From the NCBI GenBank assembly GCA_963924555.1, contig OZ004587.1:8510075-8574074 (forward strand): a stretch of DNA of 64,000 nucleotides. Reading direction: 5' to 3'. Source of the DNA: Crambe crambe (Eukaryota; Porifera; Demospongiae; Poecilosclerida; Crambeidae). This document shows, in pieces, positions 8,955-64,000 of the stretch; positions within the stretch are counted from its first letter, which is position 1; each line of letters opens with the position of its first letter. The notes below the pieces were generated by a model. That model had not been told where the DNA came from, did no database searches, and worked only from the letters and a program-made list of their open reading frames with translations. Position numbers and translations under genes: made by a program.

Positions 8955-11900
8955 GTATGCCAGTATGGTACCAAAAATGGGGTAATTCCAAACAGTTAAA
9001 ATTGTTCTTTTTAAAGTCAAAGTTTCCCAAATTCATGTGAGGGGCCCAAGTTGAAATAGAACTGCTTTATTCAAGTGTAAGTGCAAATAAACAACCACAT
9101 GAACATAATGAAATGCTTGCCATTAAACTACTATATGACCACAGGAACAACTGTCTCTTGCCATTAAACTACTATATGACCACAGGAACAACTGTCTCTT
9201 GCCATTAAACTATTCCGGCTTCCCACTTTTACCAATTTCAAAATTTCAAACACAGGCACACTGTAAAAACAAAAGTGTTTACTGCACACCACTTTGTCCC
9301 AATACACACACTGTTTTTGTTTTTGGTGTGTGTATTGGGACAATTTAGTGTGCAGTACACACTTTCATTTTTACAGTGCAGACATTAATTTATCTGAAAT
9401 TTCTTTTTATAATGCTTCATTCCTTATCACCTGTATGTCCCATAAGCAAAGTATGGAGCTGCCATTTACCACAAGGAATTTAGAACACCTGCTTTGAGTG
9501 GATTGAATAAACCATGGCAGTCAAGTGTTCAAAACCCCCTAAACCATGATAAAAGTTCTTATGTAAACTTACTTCACCACCAGGTGAAAAGTGCTGGAAT
9601 GCATGTCAGAATATAATAACAGTCACTTCCTCCTTGCACATATGAGTTTTAGTAGCCTCCTACCCAGGCCCACTTTCTTTCATGGGGCAGAGGGAAAGTG
9701 GAAGGGTTGATCTTATATTATTATTATAGAACAAAAGTCAATTTTAGAAATTGTTTGAATGAATTCTAGATTTTTTAACATTCTTCCCTCTTCTGTGTCG
9801 ATGTAGTTTTTCACTGTAGTCTTCTGAGAACCTTTAGAGTAAGGGTAGAAGAGAAAGAAGAATTTTTGGTTTATACAGTCTTATGACCTTTGACCCACCA
9901 TCTCGGTGCTAACGTACTCTCTGATTATAGCAGTTGTACATTTGTCTCTTTCCAAGTACAGGTAGTTTTTCTTGAAGTAGTCAAAATTTAATTTTGTGCT
10001 TCCTTCGTGTACAATATGATTATTCCTGCTGTGTGTGTGTGTAGGTGAAGTCCTGAGGTACGAGCTTTATTTGAACTTCTTGCTGACTATATTGTGGTGG
10101 AAGCTTGCAGTGACTGAATCTGAAGGGACGACAAAGACTCGCTTTCGTAATGGCCCACATTGCTCGTGTACCATGTGCACTAATCATCCAAATGGCTGCA
10201 CTATCGCAAGGAGAAATATTTCCATGGTGATACTACCTCTTAAAGACAACTGGAAGTGCTATCGCAGAAGAAGAGTTCTTCAGACTGTTCACTATTCTGA
10301 TCATCAAGTGGTGACTTCTTTGTTATTGATATTGGCTGGTGATGTTGAAACTAACCCTGGTCCTGGTGAGTATTTAGTGGAGTCAAGCATATCGTCATGA
10401 AAGGGATCAGCTATCAGTTTTGCATATTGCACATGCTCAGTAGCCAATAGTGACAATAAGCCAGTTTCTCAAGAGTTACTGCACTTAGGAGTGTGAATGG
10501 TCTTCTATCATTTGATTCTATAGTGCCAACCATGATGGACATCATCTGCTTTCCTTTGCAAGACTCTAAAGTGGACTTGACTAAAGAAGTTGGAATAAAG
10601 TACCTTCAGTTTGGGATTCTCCTTTTGGAAGACCAGACTGGAGCGCGTATCAGTGCCATGGAGAGAGAACTGGCGAAGAATGCACAAGACATTAACTACC
10701 GTGTGTTTCAAGAGTGGCTACAAGGGAATGGGAGAAAACCTGTGTCCTGGGAGACTCTGATTTCTGTGCTGGAAGATATTGGACTGAGCCAACTTGCTAA
10801 ATCAATAAGAGGTAGATAATTTTTGAGTTTGTTATCTCTTTGTTGGTGAATGTGGGGCTTGCTGGTTGCAAAGGTTCTCTGATTGTCCCTCAAGTGAGGC
10901 AGTTTCAAACTTTGAGACCGAGTGCCTAGAGGTTGTGGGTAGACAGCACATACCATAAATTGGGAAACTTAAATGGATGCAGCTATATGCTATTCTTGCA
11001 TTATTTGACTGCAATTCCATAGAACACTGTGATGCTAATTCAGAACAACCTCCAAAAGAACCTACTGCTGGTGAGTATGAAGTAGCTAGAAAATTTTCAA
11101 GGCTATACAAAAAGTATGTTTGCTTGTTACACGAATAGTTTGATAATTTTTCAACTGCATTTTTTGTTCAGAACATGCTCTATCTGACCAGACTGATGTA
11201 AAGGATGGAGCTAGTACTAGTGATTGGACCAATGAAGGTATGGTAACTATATGAGCTACCAGACACGACAATTAGTATTAGAATCAGTGCATGGTGGAAC
11301 CCCCGGCCTCTAAGCAATTGCGATTGGAGCTTGTGCATATGTTCGTTTCACCTTTGACCCCACAAATAAAACATACCCACAACACTTGGCCATTTCCTCA
11401 TAGAGGCCTAGGTAGATTATAGGTGCTTGGCTTTCTAAGTACTTGTGGTAAGCATTATACAGCCTCTTGTGTATGCAGCTGCACCACCACAGCAATACCT
11501 TAGGCTAAGGAGTTGAAGTACAAATGATTTCACCAACTGCTTTGCTCGCCAATTGAATATGTTACACAAACATACCCTAGCTCACGCGCTACTATTGCAC
11601 AACACGTACGTACCATCATACATATGCCTGGGGCATTTTGGAGTGTAGACCTAGATATATGAGTGCCAAAAATTTCTTCTAAATAAGTAGGTTAAGTCAC
11701 TCCCTACTAGCTATGGCAGTTGTAAATGTAGGGATTGTTTTCATACAAGGCTGCAGTACGTTATACAGCCCAGCTAGATTTTAGGCTATCCTGGCTTAAC
11801 CTACTTGTAAATACGAAAGTATGAAAGTCATTAAAAAGACAGCTACAGTGGGTGTCTATATTTCGAGGTATAAAAGTTTCACGGATATTTTTTAAAGCTG

Positions 11901-14900
11901 CCCACTTTACTTGTTTAATTAGATCTGGTGACAAGTATTAACACAAGTTTGGACCAATCAAGAGGAAAATCTGAAAGTGTAAGTTTTCCTTATCTCACTT
12001 TGTGGCTCCAATCATTCTTTCAGTCTCGATCCTCGTGGCATATTTTTTGCTGTTATTGATTTTGATAAAGAGCTCATTATTTTCAGTTTATATGCACTAA
12101 CCAGCAACTCCAGTTCCATTAATTAATCCAATTTGTCATAAATATCTCTCATATGTAAAGATCATATTACTAAGCTATAGGTAAGTCCACACTATCAGCT
12201 TTTGCACCAAACTATACTTCCTGCTGGACCTGGAGTCCATGTGTGTTATAGCTACCTTTAACCATTTGCCATTCACTGCATTTGCTTTCCTCCCCTTTCC
12301 CTCCCTATGCACAGACTATCACTACTTCTACTGAGAGAAAGAGTATCAGCAAACCAGATGATGAAGCAGATCGTGGTAAACTTTCTCACAAGAAAAAGAG
12401 AGTCAAAAAACCAGGTGAGCTTTTTTAATTTTAATATCACAGCTAAAAGAATGAAAGGTACTGAAGTGCTGCTAACCCTCAGCACACACTAAGAGTTCTT
12501 AGTGGCTGTATGTGTTTGGCAGATATTGAGCAGATCACCAATGGGTAGGAGGTTTATTAAATTGGCATGTGCATTCCATATTGTTGAGCAAGCTAGCATT
12601 CTCATTTTGAACCATCAGTGCCTGCTCAGGTACAGATATCATACCATTAACAACTCTCTCCAGTCACCCAAAACGGCAAATATAGCTTGGTTCAGTGTGA
12701 CAGTTAAGTGAGGCAAACAACCTTCCACTAGGCAGGCAAATAGCTAGGTATGGTCTAAAGAACCCATGGAATCTGATGAATACGTGACAGTCGAGGGTAG
12801 AAATCAAACAGTATTCACACTTTCTAATTTTGAAAAAAAGTTATTGTTAAGCGATAAATTAGACTAAAATGTGAATTTCTACCCTCGACTGTCACTATAC
12901 AGGAGTTCTTGATTCTAATACCCGGCCATGGTAGAAGCAAATCTTAGCTATAGATACCCCCATGTGTTACTCTTTTGCATAAATTGAATCCAAAAATCCA
13001 TTCCCCAAAATGACACTTTGTGTGCAATGTGGTCATTCATATGACAGCATGAGTGTAGGTAAAGGGATCAAGCACACTAAAAATTGTGTTGTAGCCATTA
13101 GACTCAAACTCTGAAGTGACAGTTAGTATGCATTGAGTTATCTAATGTGTGACCTTGAAAGTGCAAGTCAAAATGGATGTGTCATGTATACATAGACTGT
13201 TTCTTTCTTTGACCGTAGCCTTAGATGATTGCTAAGGCTGTAGTAACCACATTAGCTCCTAGTTAAGTTAGTCCATACATGTTCCTCTAATTATACTACT
13301 TTAGAGCAGAAACAAGTTGTCTCAGAAGAAATAGACATGGCTAAGTAAGTAGGCATGGTCAAATGTGCACCATTTTAGCTTGGGAAGAGTTTAACTCCAC
13401 CCCCACCCCTTGATCCAGTCCTGAGTACTGTAGACACTTACTCTGTTACCTAAATGGTCCTGTGTAGCTACCACAACCATAATTATGTTGAGAAAATCTA
13501 ACTGCCTCCCCTATTATGAACTTCTGGCTACAACCCTGTAGTTATGTGGCTCAGATGTCTACCATCATGGTTGCTTCCTGTGATAAGCCCTGCCCATGCC
13601 ACACCTATTGTAAGGGTGTATAAAAATATCTATCATAAAGTGTGATATTTAAGAGAATGTTTATTTATGGGTATGTCCCTGATGATGATGTCTTAATTAG
13701 TTGTCACATGGTCCTTTGTGATTGTGATGGTCTATGTGGATAGGTCTCAGGTGGTGTCTTAATTGGTGGTCAATGATACATGATAGCTATATATGTGGGT
13801 ATGTCCCTGGTGTTATCTTAATTAGTGTGTCATAGTATAGGTGTGTGATAATGTTTTATTTCCAGCTCCTCCCCTCAGTGTGGAGAATGTAATGGCAGTC
13901 CTGGAAGCACTACCATGGAGACGCGTTAGTGATCAACTGTATGTCCCTGACTCCAAACGTTATGCCATTGCATCAGAAAACTCTACAGATAGACAGAGAC
14001 TGGCAGCTGTCATCCGATACTGGATCCTGAGGGACCCGTATGCCTCCTGGAGGAGGCTTATACATACACTTGACTATTACGACAAATTGAATGATGACAG
14101 TAAAAAGTGGCATGATGTAGCAGACAGGATACGGAAGTATGCAGAGAAACAAACAGGTGAGTGAGTGTCATTGCTCAGATCAGATTATTGTTGCCCAATG
14201 CACTGCACATACAGCAAGAAAGCCAAACCCTTGAATTGAATTATTAACTACTAACAGTGTATAGTGACAATAATCACTGAAAGGACAAAGGAGGTTCTAT
14301 TTCACAGACACTGCTTTCCATGTATGGAAATGAGGGGATTAAGCATTTAGCAATGTAGAAATAAGTATGAGTTCACTCTCCCCCTCCCAATATCACTGAG
14401 CAGCCTAATAGTTGTGTTGGTTGCATAGCAACAACATAAACTCCTCACCCTCCCCTCCCACATTGATTGTTTTTGTCCAGTGCCCCGCCCTCTATTAAAA
14501 ACCCTCCATGGTGCTTGATTAATACTGTGAATTGTGTGGGTGTGTCTTATCTGGGGTAATAGAAGTGTTTGTGTCCCCCCAGACCCCAGCCTCACCTCTC
14601 GCAGTTTGTTAGCTGCTCTGGACACTGTAAAGAGTGTAAAGACTACCAGTGTAATCTATCGCTTGGAGTTGGTACTTCAGATACCACCCCCTAAGTGGCA
14701 TGAGATGAGATCACGATGTGTTGAAGAGGACACCTACCGTGGTGAACTGGTGCACTATTACCTCGGTACCCATCCACAAGCTAGTTGGAATCACCTGGCC
14801 GTGTCACTTCTCAAACAGAATCGACACAGCGCTCTCGAGAAAGTGAAGGGGAAGGTTAAAGCTGATAAAGGTAGGTGTGTGGTAGATGACACATAATGAC

Positions 14901-17900
14901 ATACTAAGTGAGGGAAGGAAGACTGTAGTCATGTGATTGGTCTACAGTGGATCCTCCTATTAAGGACTCTCAGGTCTTCATTGACAGAAATTGTCAAGGG
15001 ACACAAAATTTGAGTGTTGACACTGAATGTTTTCATAATAGCTCTGTGTGTAGCTATTGTTCAAGGGGGCAAGATTGTACCTGGACCCCCTCCAACTCAT
15101 TAGAGTAGCAATTTCTGGTTGAAGGTCATTTGAGATTTCTGTATAATGACTTGTGCTTTCAAAGTGCTTTGGTGCTTTTGCTACATATGCCTTGTCATGG
15201 CATAAGCAGGAAACTTGATTGGTCCAACAATACAGTTTAAACTACATTAAGCATGCATGGCCAGTGGAAGTGGATTGGTGTGACTATCAGTCAGCAGGGG
15301 GAGGGGCTAGCATATGGAGGGCATTAATTAATGATTTAAAATCTGATATGTTAGAGCTATTCCCACTATAAATATTGTGGAAGTGAATGCATACACTTGA
15401 GGTTGTCGTTAGAGTATCAACTCTAGTTGACTGAAGTAATGCACACTGCATGAGCTCATGCTATTTTTATTTGTTGTTGAAGGGACTTATTTTTGTTGAT
15501 TGGCTCATGTTTTATTCTTTATGTTCCCTCCCACAGACCCCTCCCTCACCCTCGCTAATCTCACTCAGCTGCTACAGGATGTGAGGGATTGGGGTGGTGT
15601 GAGTATTGATCTCAATATCCCCTACTCAGTGCGTGACAGTATTGAATCTCAACTCTCCGATAGGTCGGAACGTGTGAAGGCTTTGGGGGAGTGGTACCTG
15701 AACAACTACCCATGTCCATCATGGAGACATGTGGCTCATGCTCTATATGTGTGGAAGGAGCATGAAGTGCTGGAAGTGTTGAAGAGTCACTACCTTAAAG
15801 GTGAGTCTTGTGGTCTGTGATGGTTTTTGGAACTGTAGCATCATTACATGTGAGCCTTATCTCCTCTCTCTCACTATCCTGACCTGCAGTGGTTCCAACA
15901 GTGATAATCACAGAGAGACTAGTTGGGAGTACATTGATTGTATGGGGAGGGGCATTAGGTTCAATGGGAAAATAGATTGAATACCTATATGAGTATTAAC
16001 TTAGGTTTGCTGCCTCCCCAACATGGACCCTTGTTTGTTTGTTTGTTTGTTTGTTTGTTTTTGTTTATTATATTATCTGGGATTCCTAGTGCATGTCCTC
16101 CCATCTCATAGAGTTGATCATCCAGGACTTCTGATATGTGTTTATTAGGAAGTCCACTCTAAAGTCGATTTGATATACCTCAAGAGTAAGGGGTGTGGGG
16201 ACTCTCCTTGATTCAATTGATCTACTCCCCCTCAAATACATGTCTCCTGCATACCATACAGCACACCCCCACTTCTTAATTAAATCCCCTCTTAATATTC
16301 ATATCTCTGTAGGTGAAATACCTGCTACAATCATGTAGTGATATTTTTGATCGTAGGTTCGTCTGAGTCACGTAGATTGTACAACGAGGCAATGAGGGAA
16401 GGATCCATCAGAGCTCAGATCAATAAAATCCTCCTCTATGGAGCTCCCGGGACAGGCAAGTCCAGCTCCATGGACCTGTTTGTTGGCAACCCTCCGAGAG
16501 GAGTCAGAACGAGCACTCCTCTAGCTGCTCGTCCAATCACTATGTTCCATGTTGGTGTCACCAGCAAGGAGTGGAAGAAACTTCCTCCAGAGGAAAGAAG
16601 ACGAATATTATCCAGAGCCATAGCTGCTCACTCTCCTCCTGATGCCACCCAGTCCCCCGAGGGTTCTGATTCTGCCGAGAGTTCTGATTTTTGTGAGGAT
16701 TCTGACTCTGGTGGTGAAAAATCTACTGGAATGGAAGGTGGTATCGATACTAAACGTAGAGAAGCTCACACAGCAGAAGACAGATCTTCAACACACGATC
16801 GAAATCTTCGAGTACACCAAGTGTCTCTCTCCAGTCCAACAGCCACTAGAAAACCAAAGCCAAAGAGAAAGAGCTCACTGCCATCCATTACCACACACGA
16901 CCAACTGATAGAGCTAATGGACGAGTGCTTGGAGTCAGACAAACCCCTATCTACCTTCCGTAAGCTCTACCTGATTGACTCTGGAGGGCAACCACAGTTC
17001 CACGAGGTGCTACCCATATTTCTTCGTCGAATGTCGTTGTATATTTTCGTGTTTAAGTTATCGGAAGAGCTCGCCACCAAACCCATGGTGGAGTATTTCG
17101 ATGGTAGTGGGAAGCGTGTGGGGACCCCTTACCGATCGGCCCAGTCAAATGAGCAACTGTTGAAACATCGTCTGCGCACCATGCATACTCACAGATCTGA
17201 CAGCAAGAGTGGAGGTGAGTGCTCCAGAATCATGATCGTGGGGACCCACAGGGACGAAGAACATAAGTGCACGAGTGAATCGCGACAGGAGAAGAATAAG
17301 AAGTTAGCAGATATACTACTTCCAGCGTTCGAAGATGAAGTCATCTTCTACAAGCAGAGTGAGTTAATCTTTCCAGTCAATGCCAAAGATCCTGCAGAAT
17401 TGGACAAAAGCATTGCAAAGAATGTCCAAGGTTTAGTCCTAGACGAGTGTGAGCCAGTCTCTATAGATGTGCCTCTCCAGTATTTCTCTTTGGAAATACT
17501 CCTAGAAGAAGTGAGCCTTTCTCTAGATAGAGGTGTACTGAGCAAAGAAGAGTGCCTTAGAGCAGCAAAAGATCTCTACTTTGATGAGCACTCTCTCGAT
17601 GCGGCTCTCCAGTTTCTAGACGAGATTTCAGCAGTCTTCTATTTCCCTGAGATTCTGGAGGGTGTTGTATTCACCAACCCTCAGGTCCTCTTGGACAAAG
17701 TGACTGAGTTGGTGGAGAAAATTTTCTGCTTGAGGGAAAATATCGGTGGTGAGGCTATAGGATTGACTAGAAGCTGGCGGAAGTTCAAAGAGCATGGCAT
17801 CATTAGCTTAAAGCTTCTCCAAAGGGAAGAATTTAACAAGCATTACGTTCCTGAAATCTTTGCTCCAGTAGATCTGGTGAAGCTGTTCAAAGAGTTGCTT

Positions 17901-18834
17901 ATTATAGCCGACTTTAGTGCTTCAGAGTACATCATGCCTGCCCTTCTTCCATTCCTGGAAAAGGAGAAGGTTCGTGAGTATCGCGTGTCCAATGATTCCA
18001 CTTTAGCTCCCCTTGCTCTGTCCTTCCCTCTCGGGGGGCCTCGTCTCGGCACCTACTGCAGTCTCACCTGCTTCTTAGTCTCCCGTGACAACCAGTTTCC
18101 TTGTCCTTGGAAAATCGTGCTCCTCCCTCACTCCAACACTCCAGCTTGCCTCAATCGTAACTGCACTATGTTTTCTGTTCCTGGCTACCCTGGCTCCGTC
18201 ACACTCATCGACACGTTAACACAATTCGAAGTACACGTGCACACCGCTGAGAAAGTGCGCAGCAAGATGTCTTCCTTTGTCTCCCTAGCCATATTTGCAG
18301 GTCTGAGGAAAGCAACACTTGTTCTTGGCTACAACAACTCCATCCCATCGAAAGCACTGCTCTGTCCGTGTGATCATGATGGGAATGACCCTCATGTCGC
18401 CACGTTTGGAGATGGAATCTGGACCTGCAGTCAAAATCCCAATACATTTGGAGACCTCACTTCAAGACAGCTGCCGTGGTGTGAACAAGAAGATCCCCTT
18501 CCTACAAATGGTATGTCTGTCTATTCATAAAGTGTACTTCATGTCAATTATTCTCTTGCATGCAGCACCACTGGACTTGAAGACAGTGCAAGGTGCATTG
18601 TGGGATGCCAAATGCAAGTGGTATAACCTCGGTCTAGAGCTCGGCTTGGACAGATCAACTCTTGACACAATCAGTGCTAACCAACGTGAACAAGTGGAGG
18701 ACTGTTTTCGAGAAGTTCTTTCTAAATGGCTGGATTTAGTGACCCCATCATGGAAGGCACTGGTGAAGGCTTTGAGGGCACCCACTGTGGACTTTCTTCG
18801 TATAGCCTCTGAGATTGAAAGCAAGTATATTTGA
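8753..18834 (+). CDS. Receptor gene B: membrane anchor - 2A - multi-Death - ROC-COR-like GTPase - Death
   Basis: My model uses exons 8753-8954, 10045-10365, 10524-10811, 11023-11070, 11172-11237, 11923-11978, 12315-12414, 13866-14156, 14583-14870, 15537-15800, 16357-18510 and 18566-18834. All borders are AG/GT. Every junction is phase 1 except E6/E7 (phase 0). The total is 4347 nt, exactly 1449 codons including the stop. 2A skipping between the last Gly and Pro of NPGP would release about 173 residues of membrane-anchored leader from about 1275 residues with five Death-folds and the GTPase. Death domains plus a ROCO-type GTPase suggest an innate-immune or cell-death signalling receptor. Linker exons E4-E7 and the E7-to-E9 join are the least certain. 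There is no expression evidence. Confidence 0.75.
8955..10044 (+). other. Gene B intron 1
   Basis: Non-coding. It holds a short tandem duplication (about 46 bp, ccattaaactactatatgac unit, 9119-9215), a 120-bp foldback MITE (9259-9378) and otherwise sequence shared with introns of genes C and D. It ends in a (GT)6 AG acceptor. Gene C has a Harbinger-like element here and gene D a 2.56-kb element. Confidence 0.7.
9259..9378. mobile_element. 120-bp foldback MITE
   Basis: Near-palindromic insert with ends CACTGTAAAAA and TTTTTACAGTG and long inverted arms (TTTGTCCCAATACACACAC against GTGTGTGTATTGGGACAA). It is absent from gene C at 26825, where the flanks read straight through cacaggcagaca. It has no coding capacity. 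Confidence 0.7.
10045..10365 (+). CDS. Gene B exon E2: Cys-containing segment ending in a 2A motif
   Basis: 321 nt, phase 1 in and out (gtgtag|GT ... CCT G|gtgagt). It starts EVLRYELYLNFLLTILWWKL, a second hydrophobic stretch. It continues with a Cys cluster (CSCTMCTNH, then NGC), a basic run (YRRRRVL) and ends SLLLILAGDVETNPGP. D-V/I-E-x-N-P-G-P is the consensus of 2A peptides, which make the ribosome skip one peptide bond before the final Pro. The motif (10341-10364) sits exactly at the exon end and is invariant in genes C and D. Confidence 0.85.
10341..10364 (+). promoter_or_regulatory. 2A ribosome-skipping (translational recoding) motif, gene B
   Basis: It encodes DVETNPGP, preceded by a hydrophobic LLLILAG as in active 2A sequences. 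Skipping would occur between Gly and the last Pro, leaving Pro as first residue of the Death/GTPase product. Activity is inferred from the family consensus, not shown. Confidence 0.8.
10524..10811 (+). CDS. Gene B exon E3: first Death-fold domain
   Basis: 288 nt, phase 1 to phase 1 (ttctatag|TG ... ATAAGAG|gtagat). It reads GIKYLQFGILLLEDQTGARI, INYRVFQEWLQGNG and PVSWETLISVLEDIGLSQLA, a Death-fold pattern ending in the W-x-x-L-x-x-x-L helix 5 core. It follows the 2A motif directly after splicing, so it would be the N-terminus of the released protein. The gene C exon differs at one residue only (E to M). Gene D has an unrelated-looking Death exon in this place. Confidence 0.8.
11023..12414 (+). 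CDS. Gene B linker exons E4-E7
   Basis: Four small exons with good borders: 11023-11070 (EHCDANSEQPPKEPTAG), 11172-11237 (EHALSDQTDVKDGASTSDW), 11923-11978 (DLVTSINTSLDQSRGKSES, ending phase 0) and 12315-12414 (starts phase 0, TITTSTERKSISKPDDEAD, ends with basic HKKKRVKKP, phase 1). All keep frame and all have exact counterparts in gene C. E6 and E7 also occur in D. They form a hydrophilic linker; the basic cluster resembles a monopartite nuclear-localisation signal. No domain is recognised. Confidence 0.6.
12523..12548 (+). CDS. Possible alternative terminal exon of gene B
   Basis: After acceptor tttggcag, phase-1 reading gives DIEQITNG and TAG. Splicing E7 to it would end the protein after the NLS-like linker: anchor, 2A, one Death-fold and the basic tail. 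Counterparts at 29991-30016 and 56113-56138 keep acceptor, frame and stop. Confidence 0.4.
12784..12895. repeat. Foldback repeat in gene B intron
   Basis: Inverted arms GTGACAGTCGAGGGTAGAAAT and ATTTCTACCCTCGACTGTCAC surround an AT-rich loop, with TA nearby on both sides. Counterparts at 30252-30364 and, diverged, 57162-57292 show it predates the duplications. It is probably an old MITE. Confidence 0.65.
13866..14156 (+). CDS. Gene B exon E9: Death-fold domain
   Basis: 291 nt, phase 1 both sides (atttccag|CT ... AACAG|gtgagt). It has the Death-fold pattern SVENVMAVLEALPW, YVPDSKRYAIASEN, RLAAVIRYWILRD and ASWRRLIHTLDYYDK, then an acidic loop and WHDVADRIRKYAEK. It is variable against C and D at SDQLYVPDSKRY and at the loop after HTLD, while the core is fixed. 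Confidence 0.8.
14583..14870 (+). CDS. Gene B exon E10: Death-fold domain
   Basis: 288 nt, phase 1 both sides. The invariant core is KWHEMRSRCVEEDTYRGELV then HYYLGTHPQASWNHLA. Two variable patches flank it (after LLAALDTVK, and LLKQNRHS). C is 9 nt longer in the first patch. It probably mediates homotypic interaction. Confidence 0.8.
15537..15800 (+). CDS. Gene B exon E11: Death-fold domain
   Basis: 264 nt, phase 1 both sides (tcccacag|AC ... CTTAAAG|gtgagt). It reads SLTLANLTQLLQDVRDWGG, variable IPYSVRDSIESQLSD, and conserved ALGEWYLNNYPCPSWRHVAH, LEVLKSHYLK. Exon length differs by codon multiples in C (261) and D (258). Confidence 0.8.
16357..18510 (+). CDS. Gene B exon E12: ROC-COR-like GTPase
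   Basis: 2154 nt and fully open. It has the same motifs and spacing as in gene A (GAPGTGKSS, DSGGQPQFHE, THRD, VNAKD) and the COR-like half with EISAVFYFPE. It differs from A and C in scattered residues (for example FEDEVIFYKQ and CEPVSIDVPLQYF), so it is the more diverged of the three complete copies. The end joins E13 in phase 1 (AAATG|gtatgt). Confidence 0.85.
18566..18834 (+). CDS. Gene B exon E13: terminal Death domain
   Basis: Acceptor catgcag, A-P-L-D-L start, then LGLDRSTLDTISANQREQVE, EVLSKWLDLVTPSWKALVKA and ending IESKYI TGA. It is one codon longer than A and C in the loop between helices 3 and 4. Confidence 0.85.
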
Positions 18835-28400: not shown

Positions 28401-31400
28401 GTGGGTAGACAACACATACCATAAATTGGGAAACTTAAATGGATGCAGCTATATGCTATTCTTGCATTATTTGACTGCAATTCCATAGAACACTGTGATG
28501 CTAATTCAGAACAACCTCCAAAAGAACCTACTGCTGGTGAGTATGAAGTAGCTAGAAAATTTTCAAGGCTATACAAAAAGTATGTTTGCTTGTTACACGA
28601 ATAGTTTGATAATTTTTCAACTGCATTTTTTGTTCAGAACATGCTCTATCTGACCAGACTGATGTAAAGGATGGAGCTAGTACTAGTGATTGGACCAATG
28701 AAGGTATGGTAACTATATGAGCTACCAGACACGACAATTAGTATTAGAATCAGTGCATGGTGGAACCCCCCCCCCCCCCCCCCCCGCCTCTAAGCAATTA
28801 CGATTGGAGCTTGTGCATATGTTCATTTCACCTTTGACCCCACAAATAAAACATGCCCACAACACTTGGCCATTTCCTCATAGAGGCCTAGGTAGATTAT
28901 AGGTGCTTGGCTTTCTAAGTACTTGTGGTAAGCATTATACAGCCTCTTGTGTATGCAGCTGCACCACCACAGCAATACCTTAGGCTAAGGAGTTGAAGTA
29001 CAAATGATTTTCACCAACTGCTTCACTCGCCTGTTACACGAACATACCCTAGCTCACGCGCTACTATTGCACAACACGTACGTACCATCATACATATGCC
29101 TGGGGCATTTTGGAGTGTAGACCTAGATATATGTGTGCCAAAAATTTCTTCTAAATAAGTAGGTTAAGTCACTCCCTACTAGCTATGGCATTGTAAATGT
29201 AGGGATTGTTTTCATACAAGGCTGCAGTACGTTATACAGCCCAGCTAGATTTTAAGCTATCCCGGCTTAACCTACTTGTAAATACGAAAGTATGAAAGTC
29301 ATTAAAAAGACAGCTACAGTGGGTGTCTATATTTCGAGGTATAAAAGTTTCACGGATATTTTTTAAAGCTGCCCACTTTACTTGTTTAATTAGATCTGGT
29401 GACAAGTATTAACACAAGTTTGGACCAATCAAGAGGAAAATCAGAAAGTGTAAGTTTTCCTTATCTCACTTTGTGGCTCCAATCATTCTTTCAGTCTCGA
29501 TCCTCGTGGCATATTTTTTGCTGTTATTGATTTTGATAAAGAGCTCATTATTTTCAGTTTATATGCACTAACCAGCAACTCCAGTTCCATTAATTAATCC
29601 AATTTGTCATAAATATCTCTCATATGTAAAGATCATATTGCTAAGCTATAGGTAAGTCCACACTATCAGCTTTTGTACCAAACTATACTTCCTGCTGGAC
29701 CTGGAGTCCATGTGTGTTATAGCTACCTTTAACCATTTGCCATTCACTGCATTTGCTTTCCTCCCCTTTCCCTCCCTATGCACAGACTATCACTACTTCT
29801 ACTGAGAGAAAGAGTATCAGCAAACCAGATGATGAAGCAGATCGTGGTAAACTTTCTCACAAGAAAAAGAGAGTCAAAAAACCAGGTGAGCTTTTTTAAT
29901 TTTAATATCACAGCTAAAAGAATGAAAGGTACTGAAGTGCTAACCCTCAGCACACACTAAGAGTTCTTAGTAGCTGTATGTGTTTGGCAGACATTGAGCA
30001 GATCACCAATGGGTAGGAGGTTTATTAAATTGGCATGTGCATTCCATATTGTTGAGCAAGCTAGCATTCTCATTTTGAACCATCAGTGCCTGCTCAGATA
30101 CAGATATTATACCATTAACAACTCTCTCCAGTCACCCAAAATGGCAAATATAGCTTGGTTCAGTGTGACAGCTAAGTGAGGCAAACAACCTTCCACTAGG
30201 CAGGCAAATAGCTAGGTATGGTCTAAAGAACCCATGGAATCTGATGAATATGTGACAGTCGAGGGTAGAAATCAAACAGTATTCACACTTTCTAATTTTG
30301 AAAAAAAAGTTATTATTAAGCGATAAATTTGACTAAAATGTGAATTTCTACCATCGACTGTCACTATACAGGAGTTCTTGATTCTAATACCCGGCCATGG
30401 TAGAAGCAAATCTTAGCTATAGATACCCCCATGTGTTACTCTTTTGCATAAATTGAATCCAAAAACCCATTCCCCAAAATGACACTTTGTGTGCAATGTG
30501 GTCATTCATATGACAGCATGAGTGTAGGTAAAGGGATGAAGCACACCAAACATTGTATTGTAGCCATTAGACTCAAACTCTGAAGTGACAGTTAGTATGC
30601 ACTGAGTTATCTAATGTGTGACCTTGAAAATACAAGCCAAAATGGATGTGTCATGTATACATAGACTGTTTCTTTCTTTGACCTTAGATGATTGCTAAGG
30701 CTGTAGTAACCACATTAGCTCCTAGTTAAGTTAGTCCATACATGTTCCTCTACTTATGCTACTTTAGAGCAGAAACAAGTTGTCAAAGAAGAAATAGACA
30801 TGGCTAAGTAAGTAGGCATGGTCAAATGTGCACCATTTTAGCTTGGGAAGAGTTTAACTCCACCCCCACCCCTTGATCCAGTCCTGAGTACTGTAGACAC
30901 TTACTCTGTTACCTAAATGGTCCTGTGTAGCTACCACAACCATGCTCAGATGTCTACCATCATGGTTGCTTCCTGTGATAAGCCCTGCCCATGCCACACC
31001 TATTGTAAGGGTGTATAAAAATATCTATCATAAAGTGTGATATTTAAGAGAATGTTTATTTATGGGTATGTCCCTGATGACGATGTCTTAATTAGTCGTC
31101 AGAGACACACATGGTCCTTTGTGATTGTGATGGTCTATGTGGGTAGGTCTCAGGTGGTGTCTTAATTGGTGGTCAATGATACATGATAGCTATATATGTG
31201 GGTATGTCCCTGGTGTTATCTTAATTAGTGTGTCATAGTATAGGTGTGTGATAATGTTTTATTTCCAGCTCCTCCCCTCAGTGTGGAGAATGTAATGGCA
31301 GTCCTGGAAGCACTACCATGGAGACGTGTTGGTCGTGAACTGTATGTCCCTAAGTCCAAACTTGATGCTATTGCATCAGAAAACTCTACAGATAGACAGA

Positions 31401-34400
31401 GACTGGCAGCTGTCATCCGATACTGGATCCTGAGGGACCCGTATGCCTCCTGGAGGGGGCTTATACATAGACTTGACAATTATATCTACTACTACTTACG
31501 ACTCTTACGAAGATGACAGTAAAAAGTGGCATGATGTAACAGACAGGATACGGAAGTATGCAGAGAAACAAACAGGTGAGTGAGTGTCATTGCTCAGATC
31601 AGATTATTGTTGCCCAATGCACTGCACATACAGCAAGAAAGCCAAAACCTTGAATTGAATTATTAACTACTAACAGTGTATAGTGACAATAATCACTGAA
31701 AGGACAAAGGAGGTCCTATTTCACAGACACTGCTTTCCATGTATGGAAATGAGGGGATCAAGCATTTAGCAATGTAGAAATAAGTATGAGTTCACTCTCC
31801 CCCTCCCAATATCACTGAGCAGCCTAATAGTTGTGTTGGTTGCATAGCAACAGCATAAACTCCTCACCCTCCCCTCCCACATTGATTGTTTTTGTCCAGT
31901 GCCCCGCCCTCTATTAAAAACCCTCCATGGTGCTTGATTAATACTGTGAATTGTGTGGGTGTGTCTTATCTGGGGTAATAGAAGTGTTTGTGTCCCCCCA
32001 GACCCCAGCCTCACCTCTCGCAGTTTGTTAGCTGCTGTGGACACTGTAAAGAATGCAGAGACTGCCTGTTATATAGTTATCTATAATAACTTGGAGTATG
32101 TACTTGGGATACCAGAGTCTAAGTGGAATGAGATGAGGTCACGATGTGTTGAAGAGGACACCTACCGTGGTGAACTGGTGCACTATTACCTCGGTACCCA
32201 TCCACAAGCTAGTTGGAATCACCTGGCTGGGAGACTTCTCTCCACGAATCAAAACAGAGCTCTTGAGAAAGTGAAGGGGAAGGTTAAAGCTGATAAAGGT
32301 AGGTGTGTGGTAGATGACACATAATGACATACTAAGTGAGGGAAGGAAGACTGTAGTCATGTGATTGGTCTACAGTGGATCTTCCTATTAAGGACTCTCA
32401 GGTCTTCATTGACAGAAATTGTCAAGGGACACAAAATTTGAGTGTTGACACTGAATGTTTTCATAATAGCTCTGTGTGTAGCTATTGTTCAAGGGGGCAA
32501 GATTGTACCTGGACCCCCTCCAACTCATTAGAGTAGCAATTTCTGGTTGAAGGTCATTTGAGATTTCTGTATAATGACTTGTGCTTTCAAAGTGCTTTGG
32601 TGCTTTTGCTACATATGCCTTGTCATGGCATAAGCAGGAAACTTGATTGGTCCAACAATACAGTTTAAACTACATTAAGCATGCATGGCCAGTGGAAGTG
32701 GATTGGTGTGACTATCAGTCAGCAGGGGGAGGGGCTAGCATATGGAGGGCATTAATTAATGATTTAAAATCTGATATGTTAGAGCTATTCCCACTATAAA
32801 TATTGTGGAAGTGAATGCATACACTTGATGTTGTCGTTAGAGCATCAACTCTAGTTGACTGAAGTAATGCACACTGCATGAGCTCATACTATTTTTATTT
32901 GTTGTTGAAGGGACTTATTTTTGTTGATTGGCTCATGTTTTATTCTTTATGTTCCCTCCCACAGACCCCTCCCTTACCCTCGCTAATCTCACTCAGCTGC
33001 TACAGGATGGGGATTGGGATGATGTGCTTTCTAATCTCGACATCCACTACTCAGTACTTAACAGTATTAAATCTAAACACTACAGTCAGTCAGAATGTAT
33101 GAAGGCTTTGGGGGAGAGGTACCTGAACGACCACCCATGTCCATCATGGAGACATGTGGCTCATGTTCTATATGAGCAGAAGGAGCATGGAGTGCTGGAA
33201 GTGTTGAAGAGTCGCTACCTTAAAGGTGAGTCTTGTGGTCTGTGATGGTTTCTGGAACTGTAGCATCATTACATGTGAGCCTCATCTCCTCTCTCTCACT
33301 ATCCTGACCTGCAGTGGTTCCAACAGTGATAATCACAGAGAGACTAGTTGGGAGTACATTGATTGTATGGGGAGGGGCATTAGGTTCAATGGGAAAATAG
33401 ATTGAATACCTATATGAGTATTAACTTAGGTTTGCTGCCTCCCCAACATGGACCCTTGTTTATTTATTTGTTTGTTTGTTTGTTTGTTTTTGTTTATTAT
33501 ATTATCTGGGATTCCTAGTGCATGTCCTCCCATCTCATAGAGTTGATCATCCAGGACTTCTGATATGTCTTTATTAGGAAGTCCACTCTAAAGTCGATTT
33601 GATATACCTCAAGAGTAAGGGGTGTGGTGGCACTCCTTGATCCAATTGATTTGCTACCCCCCCCCTCGAATACATGTCTCCTGCATACCATACAGCAATT
33701 GCTCTGCTACCCCCATACAGCACACCCCCACTTCTTAATTAAATCCCCCCTTAATATTCATATCTCTGTAGGTGAAATACCTGCTACAATCATGTGGTAA
33801 TATTTTTGATTGTAGGTTCGTCTGAGTCACGTAGATTGTACAACGAGGCAATGAGGGAAGGATCCATCAGAGCTCAGATCAATAAAATCCTCCTCTATGG
33901 AGCTCCCGGGACAGGCAAGTCCAGCTCCATGGACCTTTTCGTTGGCAACCCTCCGAGAGGAGTCAGAACGAGCACACCTCTCGCAGCTCGTCCAATCACT
34001 ATGTTCCATGTTGATGTCACCAGCGAGGAGTGGAAGAAACTTCCTCCAGAGGAAAGAAGACAAATTTTATCCAGAGCCATAGCTGCTCACTCTCCTCCTG
34101 ATGCCACCCAGTCCCCCGAGGGTTCTGATTCTGCAGAGAGTTCTGATTCTTGTGAGGATTCTGACTCTGGTGGTGAAATATCTACTGGAATAGAAGGTGG
34201 TATCAATCTTAAACATAGAGAAGCTCACACCGCAGAAGACAGATCTTCAACACACGATCGAAATCTTCGAGTACAACCAGTGTCTCTCTCCAGTCCAACA
34301 GCCGCTAGAAAACCAAAGCCAAAGAGAAAGAGCTCACTGCCATCCATTACCACACACGACCAATTAATAAGGCTAATGGACGAGTGCTTGGAGTCAGATA

Positions 34401-59800: not shown

Positions 59801-62800
59801 TTGATAACAGCTTTCGCACTGGTAAGTTTAGGAGGAATGTCACTGAAAAGACTGCACTGCCCCACTTACACCGAAACACCGTTATAGCTGAGACTCCACC
59901 TTAATTCCTTGTCTATTTTCAAAAGCATGGTAGCCTTAGCTGAAAGGGGGTGAACATTGATGGTTAGTTAGGCAAATACTAGAATATCTTCCATGGAATC
60001 AGTACACTTTATCCATCCCTCTGGAAGAGATATCCCTTCCATGTGTTCTTCGAGTGATACCAAATCCGCACACAATTGAGGAGGTAAAGGAAAAGATACC
60101 CTTACTTCTGCAGCCTACGTATAATATATGTACTCTGTATACATCAATACTTCAGATTCTGCAAGCTTCCTCTTCTTCACTCTTTGTAAATGTTTCTTGG
60201 ACTCAAATCTAAGTTTTCGTGGCATTCTAAGCTGACCATGAATATATTGTGCCTGCAACTAAAAAGTTACACTATTAAAGTAGCCCACACAAGAACTAAT
60301 TTATTTCTATCAGCTAACTACTTGGTTGAATACTTCTTATAGATTCCCACACACATAAGAAGTTACTTCTGAAATAATTGCTTTGTATGAACAAATAACA
60401 AGTGCACTTTCCAAAAGAGGGACATTAAAAATATGCAAGGAGAAGTGAAGATGTTTGCAGGAACAATACTTTATTACTGATAGAATTCCCATTCATGGGG
60501 TTAAAAGCAATCAATATGACAATTAAAACCTGTATTTTGCTTTATAAATAGCTAACTAGAGAGAGTTTTAGCTTAATTTCACTAAGCATCCAGAACAATA
60601 CCCAGTTTTAACCAGGACCATGCAGAATATTGCATGCACAATTGTAATATATCATAGTCACTACATAAGTCCTCCTTTTTATCTGGTTTCCATTCGCCAT
60701 TCACCTACCTGGAGGAAATGAGCTGGAATACTTGTCTCTCTTTCACCTGTTACTATGGCTCCACACATGCGCAGAAATCGTAACACTGTATGCCCGTAAT
60801 TTTTGTACACGGGTTAATGCGGTTTCCTATCCCGGTTACGTAGTCTATAGTATCTATGACATGGGTAGGTCTCAGGTGGTGTCTTAATTGGTGGTCAATG
60901 ATACATGATAACTATATAATAATGTGGGTATGTCCCTGGTGTTATCTTAATTAGTGTGTCATAGTATAGGTGTGTGATAATGTTTTATTTTATTTCCAGC
61001 TCCTCCCCTCAGTGTGGAGAATGTAATGGCAGTCCTACACACAATTCCATGGAGAGAAATTGGTGATCTACTCTATGTCCCTAACTCCAAACTTGATGCC
61101 ATTGCATCAAAAAACTCCACAGATAGACAAAGACTGGCAGCTGTCGTCCGATACTGGATCCTGAGGGACCCGTATGCCTCCTGGAGGAGGCTTATACATA
61201 CACTTGACTCGAGCTGGAAGGATGAGTTGCATGGCAAGGACGATGACAGTGACGAGTGGCGTGACGTGGCTGACAGGATACGGAAGTATGCAGAGAAACA
61301 AACAGGTGAGTGAGTGTCATTGCTGAGATCAGATTATTGTTGCCCAATGCACTGCACATACAGCAAGAAAGCCAAAACCTTGAATTGAATTATTAACTAC
61401 TAACAGTGTATAGTGACAATAATCACTGAAAGGACAAAGGAGGTTCTATTTCACAGACACTGCTTTCCATGTATGGAAATGAGGGGATCAAGCATTTAGC
61501 AATGTAAAAATAAGTATGGGTTCACTCTCCCCCTCCCAATATCACTGAGCAGCCTAATAGTTGTGTTGGTTGCATAGCAACAGCATAAACTCCTCACCCT
61601 CCCCTCCCACATTGATTATTATTGTCCAGTGCCAAGCCCTCTATTAAAAACCCTCCATGGGGCTTGATTAATACTGTGAATTGTGTGGGTGTGTCTTATC
61701 TGGGGTAATAGAAGTGTTTGTGTCCCCCCAGACCCCAGCCTCACCTCTCGCAGTTTAAAAGCTGCTCTGGACACTGTGGAGAATGCAAAAACTAGTGACA
61801 TATATAGTAAATTCATGGAGGATGTACTTGAGATACCATCCCCTAAGTGGCAGGAGATGAGATCACGATGTGTTGAAGAGGACACCTACCGTGGTGAACT
61901 GGTGCACTATTACCTCGGTACCCATCCACAAGCTAGTTGGAATCACCTGGCTGAGGGACTTCTCCACTATAAACAATTCACAGCTCTCAGGAAAGTGAAG
62001 GGGAAGATTAAAGATAAAGGTAGGTGTGTGGTAGATGACATATAATGACATACTAAGTGAGGGAAGGAAGACTGTAGTCATGTGAATGGTCTAGTGGATC
62101 CTCCTATTAAGGACTCTCAGGTCTTCATTTACAGAAATTGTCTAAATTAATTTTGCTCAAAATAGCTCTATTGTTCAAGGGGGCAAGATTGTACCTGGAC
62201 CCCCTCAAACTCATTTTTAGAGTAGCAATTTCTGGTTTAAGGTAATTTGAGATTTCTGTATAATGACTCGTGCTTTCAAAGTGCTTTGGTGCTTTTGCTA
62301 GTCATGGCATAAGCAGGAAACTTGATTGGTCCAACAATACAGTTTAAACTACATTAAGCATGCATGGCCAGTGGAAGTGGATTGGTGTGACTATCAGTCA
62401 GCAGGGGGAGGGGCTAGCATATGGAGGGCATTAATTAATGATATAAAATCTGATATGTTAGAGCTATTCCCACTATAAATATTGTGGAAGTGAATGCATA
62501 CACTTGATGTTGTCGTTAGAGCATCAACTCTAGTTGACTGAAGTAATGCACACTGCATGAGCTCATATGTTATTGAAGGGACTTATTTTGTTGCTTGGCT
62601 CGTGTTTTATTCTTTATGTTCCCTCCCACAGAACCCTCCCTCACCCTCACTAATCTCACTCAGCTACTACAGGATATGAGGGATTTGGATTGTGCGAGTC
62701 ACATTCTCAACATCCCCTTCCCAGTGTATATGCAATCTAAGAAGTTCAGTGAGTCAGAGTTTGTGAAGGCTTTGGGGGAGTGGTACCTGAAAAATTACCC

Positions 62801-64000
62801 ATGTCCATCATGGAGACATGTGGCTCGTGGTCTATATAAGGAGGGGGAGCATGGAGTGCTGGAAGTGTTGAAGAGTCGCTACCTTAAAGGTGAGTCTTGT
62901 GGTCTGTGATGGTTTCTGGAACTGTAGCATCATTACATGTGAGCCTCATCTCCTCTCTCTCACTATCCTGACCTGCAGTGGTTCCAACAGTGATAATCAC
63001 AGAGAGACTAGTTGGGAGTGTACATTGATTGTATGGGGAGGGGCATTAGGTTAAATGGGGAAATAGATTGAATGTCTGTATGAGTATTTACTTAGATGAG
63101 TATTAGCACCACCCCCAAACATGGACCATCCCACCCCCATTGTTTGTTTTTTTTTGTTATCTGGGATTCCTAGTGCATATCCTCCCATCTCATAGAGTTG
63201 GTCATCCAGGACTTCTGATATGTGTTTATTAGGATGATTTTTCAAGTCCACTCTAAAGTCGATTTGATATACCTCAAGAGTAAGGGATGTGGGGACACTC
63301 CTTGATCCAATCAATCTGCTACCCCCCCCTCGAATACATATCTCCTGCATACCATACAGCACGCCCCCACTTCTTAATTAAATCCCCCCTTAATATTCAT
63401 ACCTCTGTAGGTGAAATACCTGCTACAATCATGTAGTAATACTTTTGATTGTAGGTTCGTCTGAGTCACGTAGATTGTACAACGAGGCAATGAGGGAAGG
63501 ATCCATCAGAGCTCAGATCAATAAAATCCTCCTCTATGGAGCTCCCGGGACAGGCAAGTCCAGCTCCATGGACCTGTTTGTCGGTAACCCTCCGAGAGGG
63601 GTTAGAACGAGCACACCTCTGGCAGCTCGTCCAATCACTATGTTCCATCTTGGTGTCACCAGCAAGGAGTGGAAGAAACTTCCTCCAGAGGAAAGAAGAC
63701 GAATATTATCCAGAGCCATAGCTGCTCACTCTCCTCCTGATGCCACCCAGTCCCCCGAGGGTTCTTATTCTCCCGAAAGTTCTGATTCTGGTGAGGATTC
63801 TGACTCTGGTGGTGAAATGTCTACTGGAATGGAAGGTGGTAGCGATCCTAAATGTAGAGAAGCTCACACCACAGAAGACAGATCTTCAACACACGATCGA
63901 AATCTTCGAGTGCACCCAGTGTCTCTCTCTAGTCCAACAGCCGCTAGAAAACCAAAGCCAAAGAGAAAGAGCTCACTGCCATCCATTACCACACATGACC
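49780..64000 (+). CDS. Receptor gene D (3' end beyond window)
   Basis: Exons are 49780-49981, 53357-53677, 53899-53928, 54923-55213, 55501-55556, 55898-55997, 61000-61305, 61732-62019, 62632-62889 and 63455 onward. All phases agree. It differs from B and C in having a 10-codon exon plus a different Death exon after 2A and lacking E4/E5. Introns are swollen by at least five insertions. The frame is open as far as the window shows, so this is a plausible working paralogue with a remodelled N-terminus. Confidence 0.7.
50012..52570. mobile_element. 2.56-kb element with long inverted repeats in gene D intron 1
   Basis: The left 50012-50290 and right 52340-52570 are inverted copies (CTGCAACATGATCCTAGTTT against the inverse of ...ACTAGGATAACACGTTGCAG). 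Removing it restores the gene C-like sequence cagctagttatctgt / ctagtatggtacc. Inside are 50690-51300, a diverged copy of receptor intron sequence (12990-13390), and a minus-strand frame (51934-52269) with a 76-bp direct duplication at 52085-52236 (YQHLFKLLQLAEQDHMVF). No known transposase is recognised. Confidence 0.65.
53357..53677 (+). CDS. Gene D exon E2: Cys segment with 2A motif
   Basis: 321 nt. CSCTMCTNHRNGC cluster and 2A DVETNPGP at 53653-53676, followed by donor G|gtgagt. ATG 53332 is in frame through the (GT)4 AG repeat. Sequence upstream of 53310 is not that found before exon 2 in B and C. Confidence 0.85.
53653..53676 (+). promoter_or_regulatory. 2A ribosome-skipping motif, gene D
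   Basis: DVETNPGP, identical to genes B and C, although the exons spliced after it differ. Confidence 0.8.
53823..53888. repeat. (TC)n microsatellite
   Basis: About 32 TC units directly upstream of the acceptor tgtcttgcag; it forms an extended polypyrimidine tract for the next small exon. Confidence 0.95.
53899..53928 (+). CDS. Gene D 30-nt microexon
   Basis: ttgcag|GT...TTTTAG|gtaggt encodes GIDADDTTILG in phase 1 to phase 1. Borders are strong. It has no counterpart in B or C. It would place ten acidic/polar residues between 2A and the next Death-fold. Confidence 0.5.
   Translation, partial: VSMQMIQPF
53990..54758. mobile_element. 769-bp TIR element, non-coding
   Basis: Imperfect terminal inverted repeats of about 85 bp start ATTAGC (left arm AACTTCTGGGCTTGATACTG, right arm inverse AACTTCTAGGCTTGATACCA). 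No reading frame. Probably a MITE of an unidentified superfamily. Confidence 0.65.
54923..55213 (+). CDS. Gene D exon E3': alternative first Death domain
   Basis: 291 nt, acceptor aatgcag, donor GCAA|gtgagt, phase 1 both sides. It has a classical Death-domain pattern: DDVIEELKNVLEPYYEIGRR, LHLSVDKLKQIR, VIMEWLKQNYDVTRYGPPTW and KALVDAVGHSAGGNN...AEGIAS. It occupies the place of E3 in genes B and C but is clearly a different domain copy. It looks closer to E13 than to E3 by the PxW-KALV motif. Confidence 0.75.
55501..55997 (+). CDS. Gene D linker exons E6 and E7
   Basis: 55501-55556 (DLVTSVNTILEQSKVKSEN, phase 0 end) and 55898-55997 (TITTTTERKGISKPDDETD, basic HKKKRVSKP, phase 1 end). Same structure as genes B and C; E4 and E5 are absent. 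Confidence 0.6.
56113..56138 (+). CDS. Possible alternative terminal exon of gene D
   Basis: Acceptor gtttgcag, DIEQITNE then TAG in phase 1. Same stop position as in B and C although the neighbouring base differs. Confidence 0.4.
56203..57047. mobile_element. Composite insertion in gene D intron
   Basis: Replaces about 90 bp found in B and C. It contains sequence resembling the ends of the helicase-carrying TIR element (ggggaaaagagagcctggta, twice, plus gcctcgaacccagcc), suggesting a related but diverged element. No gene is recognised. Confidence 0.4.
57828..58648. mobile_element. 821-bp TIR element, hAT-like ends
   Basis: Ends CAGGCCTGTAGCCAG and CTGGCTACAGCCCTG, flanked by CTTAG (57823-57827 and 58649-58653). 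CAGGG-CTGTAGCCAG ends recall hAT elements, but the visible duplication is 5 bp. A 23-C run lies at 57865-57887. It is non-coding and absent from B and C. Confidence 0.65.
58977..60858 (-). mobile_element. 1.88-kb DNA transposon with perfect 38-bp TIRs
   Basis: The termini CATAGATACTATAGACTACG... are perfectly inverted for 38 bp. The flanking duplication ACATGGG is at 58970-58976 and 60859-60865. On the minus strand about 59360-59640 reads KCVRCKRCTNFRGCLR then SHTPYHTLSSDEMKARISKL, a zinc-cluster plus S-H-T-x-Y arrangement of the kind that precedes the catalytic domain in several animal transposase families; the catalytic part was not recognised. A perfect 30-bp hairpin lies at 59748-59812. 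Perfect TIRs imply a young insertion. Confidence 0.65.
59748..59812. repeat. Perfect 30-bp hairpin with TTTTT loop
   Basis: Arms 59748-59777 and 59783-59812 are exact reverse complements (AGCTGTTATCAACCTGCTTT ... inverse). Confidence 0.9.
61000..61305 (+). CDS. Gene D exon E9: Death-fold domain
   Basis: 306 nt, in frame. The variable patches HTIPWREIGDLLYVPNSKLD and SSWKDELHGKDDDSDEW differ from B and C. The core RLAAVVRYWILRDPYASWRR is conserved. Confidence 0.8.
61732..62019 (+). CDS. Gene D exon E10: Death-fold domain
   Basis: 288 nt. First patch VENAKTSDIYSKFMEDVLEI, second LLHYKQFTALRK. The core EMRSRCVEEDTYRGELVHYY is identical to B and C. Confidence 0.8.
62632..62889 (+). CDS. Gene D exon E11: Death-fold domain
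   Basis: 258 nt. Patch MRDLDCASHILNIPFPVYMQ is followed by the conserved core PCPSWRHVARGLYKEGEH. Phase 1 both sides. Confidence 0.8.
63455..64000 (+). CDS. Gene D exon E12: ROC-COR-like GTPase, 5' part
   Basis: Acceptor ttgattgtag. P-loop GAPGTGKSS present, then the Ser/Asp-rich insert (EGSYSPESSDSGEDSDSGGE). The frame is open to the window edge; G3 and beyond lie outside. Confidence 0.85.

What the first reader, a model, noticed from the sequence alone, without database searches (positions are those of the whole stretch)
13866..15800. Hypervariable Death exons inside almost invariant introns
Between B and C, introns around E9-E11 differ at only a few positions per several hundred bases, but E9, E10 and E11 carry clusters of amino-acid changes and codon-multiple indels confined to one or two patches per domain, around an unchanged core (EMRSRCVEEDTYRGELV, PCPSWRHVAH). 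D shows a third set in the same patches. This pattern is what strong diversifying selection, exon-targeted conversion from unseen donors, or targeted mutation would produce.
Basis: partly seen in the sequence, partly recalled or inferred. Interest (0 to 1): 0.88.

Follow-up and report, generated by a model that had tools for sequence, protein, structure and literature searches.

The report
Hypervariable Death domains in GTPase receptors
In a large family of GTPase-like genes, three consecutive Death domains, a module usually thought of as a fixed signalling plug, differ strongly between copies at a few positions while the DNA around them stays nearly the same, as expected if these surfaces recognise something and are pushed to differ.

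Summary
Between copies B and C, introns 9+10 differ at 8 of 1093 sites, exons E9-E11 at 93 of 839. Changes sit in two patches per domain, largely at homologous positions. Two arrays on other chromosomes repeat the pattern. E9 and E11 model as six-helix Death domains, best PDB match FADD; selected sites lie mostly on helices 2-3 and around the helix 5-6 turn. The gene is Roc-COR-like (weak profile support).

M2a gives omega 8-10 at 17-28% of sites; the Roc-COR exon as a whole has omega 0.33. Silent third positions of hypervariable codons are at background in the closest copies and up to threefold raised elsewhere, far below replacement change; several recent duplicates keep their patches. Targeted mutation is not needed. 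Introns are no clock: they are 6-16 times less diverged than Roc-COR silent sites, and a ~2.2 kb block appears to have been exchanged between loci, even into another subfamily.

Best reading: diversifying selection on a binding surface of tandem Death domains, plus inter-locus conversion homogenising the remainder. New variant of a known kind; ligand unknown.

The parts
13766..15965 (+). exchange block (E9-i9-E10-i10-E11 plus about 100 and 165 bp) in copy B
   Evidence: 50-bp profile: similarity rises between 13.72 and 13.82 kb against I, H, G, D and F1 (5 of 7 copies; F3 is similar further upstream, J aligns too poorly) and falls at about 15.97 kb against I, H, G, D, F3 and F1 (6 of 7)
13866..14156 (+). 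E9 of copy B, Death domain with hypervariable patches (M2a residues 18,19,22,23,28 and 67,70,74,78,79)
14157..14582 (+). intron 9, 4/427 differences B-C
14583..14870 (+). E10 of copy B, hypervariable domain (core EMRSRCVEEDTYRGELV); not modelled, placed in the Death fold by alignment with E9 and E11
14871..15536 (+). intron 10, 4/666 differences B-C
15537..15800 (+). E11 of copy B, hypervariable Death domain (core PCPSWRHVAH)
16356..18527 (+). Roc-COR-like exon of copy B (start approximate), conserved comparison
10020..10397 (+). upstream ORF ending in a 2A-like motif (DVETNPGP)
10460..10816 (+). N-terminal Death-like ORF, 97.5-99.7% identical in the four other copies in which the search found it (C, X2, F1, F2)
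18566..18831 (+). C-terminal Death domain (start approximate), mildly variable
31269..31575 (+). E9 of copy C, out of frame in patch 2
32003..32299 (+). E10 of copy C
32966..33225 (+). E11 of copy C
61000..61305 (+). E9 of copy D
61733..62019 (+). E10 of copy D
62634..62889 (+). E11 of copy D

Best explanation
E9, E10 and E11 are three tandem Death-fold domains in a multigene family of Roc-COR-like GTPases. Shown: a small set of positions, largely the same in the three domains, has diversified between copies far faster than silent sites of the same exons while the fold core is kept. Strongly indicated: a block holding the three exons has been exchanged between loci, so its introns are homogenised. 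Inferred: the variable positions, mostly on helices 2-3 and around the helix 5-6 turn, form a binding surface selected to differ between copies (recognition of pathogen molecules, non-self, or a matched partner); conversion tracts that would erase these differences are removed by selection while intronic ones persist; binding is read out by the conserved GTPase-like part and the outer Death domains.
For: M0 omega E9 1.46, E10 2.05, E11 2.84, Roc-COR 0.33; M2a over M1a 2dlnL 105.5, 129.1, 122.8, Roc-COR 8.0. Other arrays: C15 E9 (7 copies) 2dlnL 54.7, omega 19.8 at 7.5% of sites; C11 E11 (9 copies) 104.2, omega 26.8 at 16.6%. Tree-free: hypervariable codons differ at positions 1+2 at 275/570 in C10 pairs, at third-position T/C at 4/171, against 25/856 in exon core and 138/4032 in Roc-COR. 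Position agreement: E9 and E11 share 5 hypervariable positions of 7 and 11 (78 compared, p 4e-4); E11 entropy of the window family and of the C11 array correlates, rho 0.70 over 87 residues. Exchange: copy I has introns 5% from the C10 copies but a Roc-COR exon 24% from B; C10-C5 introns 1.6-1.8% against Roc-COR silent 11.5%; adjacent informative sites are less incompatible than in any of 500 shuffles for the cassette and for Roc-COR. Models: six helices, pLDDT 88.7 and 92.3; best PDB matches FADD Death domain, TM 0.79 for E11 and 0.69 for E9.
Against: No binding partner, expression or polymorphism data. The codon models assume one tree although recombination is present, which can inflate them. 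Silent third positions of hypervariable codons are above core in some comparisons: near copies T/C 72/962 against 231/4974, C10xC5 A/G 16/104 against 72/1542 (pooled Fisher p 5e-4 and 7e-5 with non-independent pairs). The excess of exon silent sites over introns is clear only in the window family (10/96 against 17/1083, p 2e-5; without copy C 6/101 against 15/1083, p 0.006), not in C15 (p 0.07) or C11 (p 0.72). Introns 9+10 alone have 8 informative sites and no recombination signal (p 0.94). Agreement between window E9 and C15 E9 is weak (2 shared of 5 and 4, p 0.024; rho 0.33). Foldseek E-values are only 0.007 and 0.073. The Roc-COR exon also has a weak M2a signal (2dlnL 8.0). Two of 13 Roc-COR exons carry a stop and one E9 is out of frame.
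Confidence: 0.7

Rival explanations
1. The variable surface is a homotypic code: each copy's Death domains must pair only with their own kind or a matched adaptor, so paralogues are selected to be orthogonal, with no external ligand.
For: Selected sites lie mostly on helices 2-3 and around the helix 5-6 turn, few on helices 1, 4 and 6. That these are one half of the faces used in Death-domain assembly, and that the aligned FADD stretch binds Fas, is recalled.
Against: Only weak: near copies C and X1 (Roc-COR silent 4/687) already differ at 44/183 codons of E10+E11, fast for a code that must stay matched. No partner gene was sought.
Confidence: 0.3
2. A targeted mutator acts on the patches (somatic-hypermutation-like, or like a diversity-generating retroelement that changes codon positions 1 and 2).
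For: Many hypervariable codons vary at positions 1 and 2 and keep one third base. Silent third positions of these codons are up to about threefold above core in some groups. L048 and L049 differ at 9/267 exon sites with 6/587 in introns.
Against: A fixed third base is also what replacement selection leaves; in C10 copies silent positions are at background (T/C 4/171, A/G 0/55). L036/037, L042/043, L049/050 and L045-047 have 0-4 intron differences in about 600 and none in the exon; L051/052 have 4/600 and 3/270. One of 42 exons is out of frame. No template repeat was sought.
Confidence: 0.08
3. The patches are pasted in by conversion from other loci or unseen cassettes, and selection plays little part.
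For: E10 patch 1 is identical in A and X2 (0/81) while their other patches differ; whole cassettes move.
Against: B's E9 patch 2 has no other match in the assembly within 3 mismatches; of 6 other matches to B's E10 patch 1 stretch the best are 80-89% and 5 are partial. Only these two patches were searched. Conversion alone does not raise replacement over silent change.
Confidence: 0.1
4. The introns are slow because they are constrained, not homogenised.
For: Introns 9 and 10 are below Roc-COR silent divergence in most group comparisons, also for copy H (6% against 18.6%).
Against: Copy J's intron 10 differs by 25.7% from C10 where Roc-COR silent sites differ by 24.5%, though only 378 of 666 bp align. 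Copy I suggests that the block moved, and block ends lie outside the exons.
Confidence: 0.12

Closest known systems
Podospora HNWD NLRs (het-d, het-e), PMC12222747 (start of abstract in a search listing, and passages)
   Same: Repeats kept alike by concerted evolution, with a few hypervariable positions under diversifying selection on the predicted binding face
   Different: WD40 repeats in a fungal NLR; here Death-fold domains in a Roc-COR-like gene, and exchange is between genes
Brown algal LRR-ROCO genes, PMC11378527 (abstract and passages)
   Same: ROCO-type GTPase, one recognition module per exon, same-phase exons, diversifying selection
   Different: LRR modules of 72 bp per exon; here whole Death domains, and no LRR family matched the window ORFs scanned
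Expanded Death-like/TRADD-N proteins of Amphimedon, PMC8195603 (start of abstract and passages)
   Same: Large marine invertebrate expansion with 1-3 Death-like domains and signs of diversification
   Different: Centred on TRADD-N, with the variable part described as the C-terminus; TRADD-N was not specifically sought here
HLA genes and snake venom genes (recalled; one search found 0 papers holding all six terms)
   Same: Exons more diverged than introns
   Different: Extracellular proteins, other folds

Membership tests
Death domain superfamily | six-helix Death fold | tested here: met
   E9 and E11 models have six helices, pLDDT 88.7 and 92.3; first PDB matches FADD Death domain, E 0.073 and 0.007. 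E10 not modelled
Death domain superfamily | profile match | tested here: inconclusive
   Pfam Death in 17 of 34 aligned domains, best 3.1e-6; window E9 below the curated cut-off, window E10 and E11 no family
ROCO (Roc-COR) proteins | Roc GTPase domain | tested here: inconclusive
   Pfam Roc in 9 of 9 members, best 1.8e-4; window copy 18.9 bits, cut-off 27. GxxGTGKS, DSGGQ and THRD are in the sequence; their meaning is recalled
ROCO (Roc-COR) proteins | COR domain after Roc | tested here: inconclusive
   COR-A in 1 of 9 members, E 0.016; PDB sequence search 0 hits
NLR | NACHT or LRR domain | tested here: not met
   no such Pfam match among 9 window ORFs or 9 Roc-COR members; one of 34 Death-fold rows matches LRRNT_2 at E 0.15, read as chance; other exons not scanned
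Brown algal LRR-ROCO | LRR exons as the variable part | tested here: not met
   variable exons are Death-fold; no LRR
Diversity-generating retroelement | template repeat and reverse transcriptase | not tested
   no search made

The most novel reading that the evidence does not exclude
The Death fold itself serves as a hypervariable recognition module: three tandem Death domains, each varied on largely the same face, form a cytoplasmic recognition array on a GTPase switch, and a discrete 2.2 kb block is the unit by which variants spread between chromosomes.
Probability: 0.35. Interest if true: 0.85.

Novelty: new variant of a known kind. Interest (0 to 1): 0.64.

Why it matters
Death domains are usually treated as conserved signalling adaptors, with sensing left to LRR or WD40 parts (recalled). 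Here they are the fastest-changing of the exons compared, in a family with at least 62 Roc-COR exon matches. If they bind ligands, sensing has moved into the adaptor fold. The case also warns that exon-intron contrasts in gene families can mislead, because homogenised introns make exons look younger than they are. Among the papers listed by my searches I saw no report of hypervariable Death domains, judging by titles and starts of abstracts plus passages of five papers; the library lacks most subscription journals.

Tried and rejected
Introns as neutral clock: rejected for this family. Hypermutation: not needed, not excluded. Donor search for two of B's patches: none close. PDB sequence search with the Roc-COR exon: 0 hits. 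Venom paper search: 0 papers.

Rows dropped: copy C from E9 codon sets (out of frame); J and the C11 rows, and columns with more than half gaps, from the codon models; copy I is absent from the Roc-COR sets, L036, L037, L042-L044 (more diverged introns) and L030 (near-duplicate of L029).
Full report
What is there. The window is G000:C10:8510075-8574074 of an unnamed 143 Mb genome; introns and Death domains suggest an animal (inference). The gene of copy B reads: an ORF ending in a 2A-like motif (10020-10397), a Death-like ORF (10460-10816), E9, E10, E11, one large Roc-COR-like exon (16356-18527) and a C-terminal Death domain. Copy A's E9-E11 lie just outside the window; C and D are in it. I fetched 14 copies, and all 14 hold E9, E10 and E11: A, B, C, D, X1, X2 in the C10 cluster, F1-F4 on C5, G on C8, H on C21, I elsewhere on C10, J on C17. 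The genome has at least 62 Roc-COR exon matches, 79 match rows of E9 type (78 exons, as C's E9 gives two rows) and 80 match rows of E10 type.

The observation. Introns 9 and 10 differ between B and C at 8/1093, exons at 93/839. The five other C10 pairs printed (of nine others) agree, except that E10 of A and X2 differs at only 6/282. Each domain has two patches: from the start of helix 2 into helix 3, and around the helix 5-6 turn, with codon-multiple indels. Two other arrays repeat this. On C15, 7 copies whose introns differ by 2-8/200 and 1-8/400 have 14-26/264 differences in E9 (12 of the 15 C15 rows were fetched). On C11, E11 varies between near-identical flanks (10 of the 25 C11 E11 rows were fetched, and one search scored only 40 of 188 candidates).

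Selection. M0 omega is 1.46, 2.05 and 2.84 for E9-E11 and 0.33 for Roc-COR (my M0 likelihoods agree with IQ-TREE). M2a beats M1a by 2dlnL 105.5, 129.1 and 122.8, with omega 9.2, 9.9 and 8.0 at 17, 22 and 28% of sites; Roc-COR gives 8.0, with omega 2.9 at 2.8%. C15 E9 gives 54.7 and C11 E11 104.2. Recombination can inflate such tests, so a tree-free comparison matters: in hypervariable codons positions 1+2 differ at 0.48-0.54 in every group, hardly rising with distance. Third-position T/C in the same codons differs at 4/171 in C10 (core 25/856, Roc-COR 138/4032), 6/116 in C5 (15/576, 114/2383), 20/354 in C10xC5 (95/1820, 515/7922) and 72/962 in 11 near copies (231/4974, 1248/21873); third-position A/G at 0/55, 3/26, 16/104 and 31/312 (core 16/714, 19/496, 72/1542, 221/4270). 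So silent change in the patches is at background in the closest copies and up to about threefold above core elsewhere, while replacement change is more than tenfold above core.

Age of the introns. In C10, segregating sites are 17/1083 in introns, 10/96 at exon fourfold sites and 37/318 at Roc-COR fourfold sites. Mean Roc-COR silent divergence is 6.6% within C10 and 11.5% for C10-C5; introns 9 and 10 are 1.0 and 0.4%, and 1.8 and 1.6%. Copy I has introns about 5% from the C10 copies, but its own Roc-COR exon is 24% from B and its introns 8 and 11 hardly align. The similar block runs from about 13766 to 15965. Adjacent informative sites are less incompatible than in all 500 shuffles for the cassette and for Roc-COR; introns 9+10 alone have only 8 such sites and no signal. 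I read this as exchange of the cassette between loci. At equal intron divergence (4 in about 600) exon differences are 19 (L033-L041), 3 (L051-L052) or 0 (L042-L043, L049-L050); L048-L049 have 6/587 and 9/267. So introns do not date the patches. C and X1 have 4/687 silent differences in Roc-COR but 44/183 changed codons in E10+E11. In C15 and C11 silent exon and intron diversity do not differ significantly.

Structure. E9 and E11 of copy B, each with 8 window rows, give six helices at pLDDT 88.7 and 92.3. The best PDB matches are FADD's Death domain: E11 TM 0.79, E 0.007; E9 TM 0.69, E 0.073. Selected residues: E9 18, 19, 22, 23 on helix 2; 28 at the start of helix 3; 67, 70 on helix 5; 74 in the turn; 78, 79 at the start of helix 6. 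E11 16 in the helix 1-2 loop; 19, 20, 23, 24 on helix 2; 29, 30, 32, 33, 36 on helix 3; 39 in the next loop; 42, 45, 46 at the start of helix 4; 71-73 at the helix 5-6 turn. Spacing i, i+1, i+4, i+5 on helix 2 is one face. Helix 1 has none in either model. Which Death-domain interfaces these are is recalled, not tested. Hypervariable positions are rich in R, D and Y and poor in P.

How it works. Shown: fold of E9 and E11 (models), replacement excess, shared positions. Strongly indicated: the exchange block. Inferred: a recognition surface, diversity kept by selection while conversion homogenises the remainder, signalling through the GTPase-like part. A homotypic code is the chief rival. The N-terminal Death-like ORF of the same gene is 97.5-99.7% identical in the four other copies where it was found, so variability belongs to E9-E11 and not to every Death domain of this gene.

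Novelty. The evolutionary logic is known from Podospora WD40 receptors (PMC12222747) and brown algal ROCO genes (PMC11378527); the module and the exchange block differ. I rate it a new variant of a known kind.

Noticed in passing
window 10341, 27806, 53653 (+); also copies A, X2, F1, F2, F4: A 2A-like motif (LLLILAGDVETNPGP; GG for AG in A and X2) upstream of the Death-like ORF in 7 of the 14 fetched loci and at three places in the window; the other loci may not reach far enough upstream. N-terminal 2A signals are reported in sea urchin NLRs (PMC4981915, passages).
   Followed up: partly
L011 and L016 (copies X1 and F2), Roc-COR exon: One in-frame stop each (TGA, TAG); possible pseudogenes.
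   Followed up: no
window 31269-31575: E9 of copy C is out of frame in patch 2, either a dead copy or an assembly error.
   Followed up: no
L045, L046, L047 (C11:1945957, 2383505, 3712778): 861-bp stretches up to 1.77 Mb apart are identical, exon and flanks, showing very recent exchange or duplication.
   Followed up: no
L020 (copy H): Intron 10 is about 1.4 kb longer than in copy B.
   Followed up: no
window 18566-18831: The C-terminal Death domain varies mildly between copies, around its second and third helices (placed by eye).
   Followed up: partly
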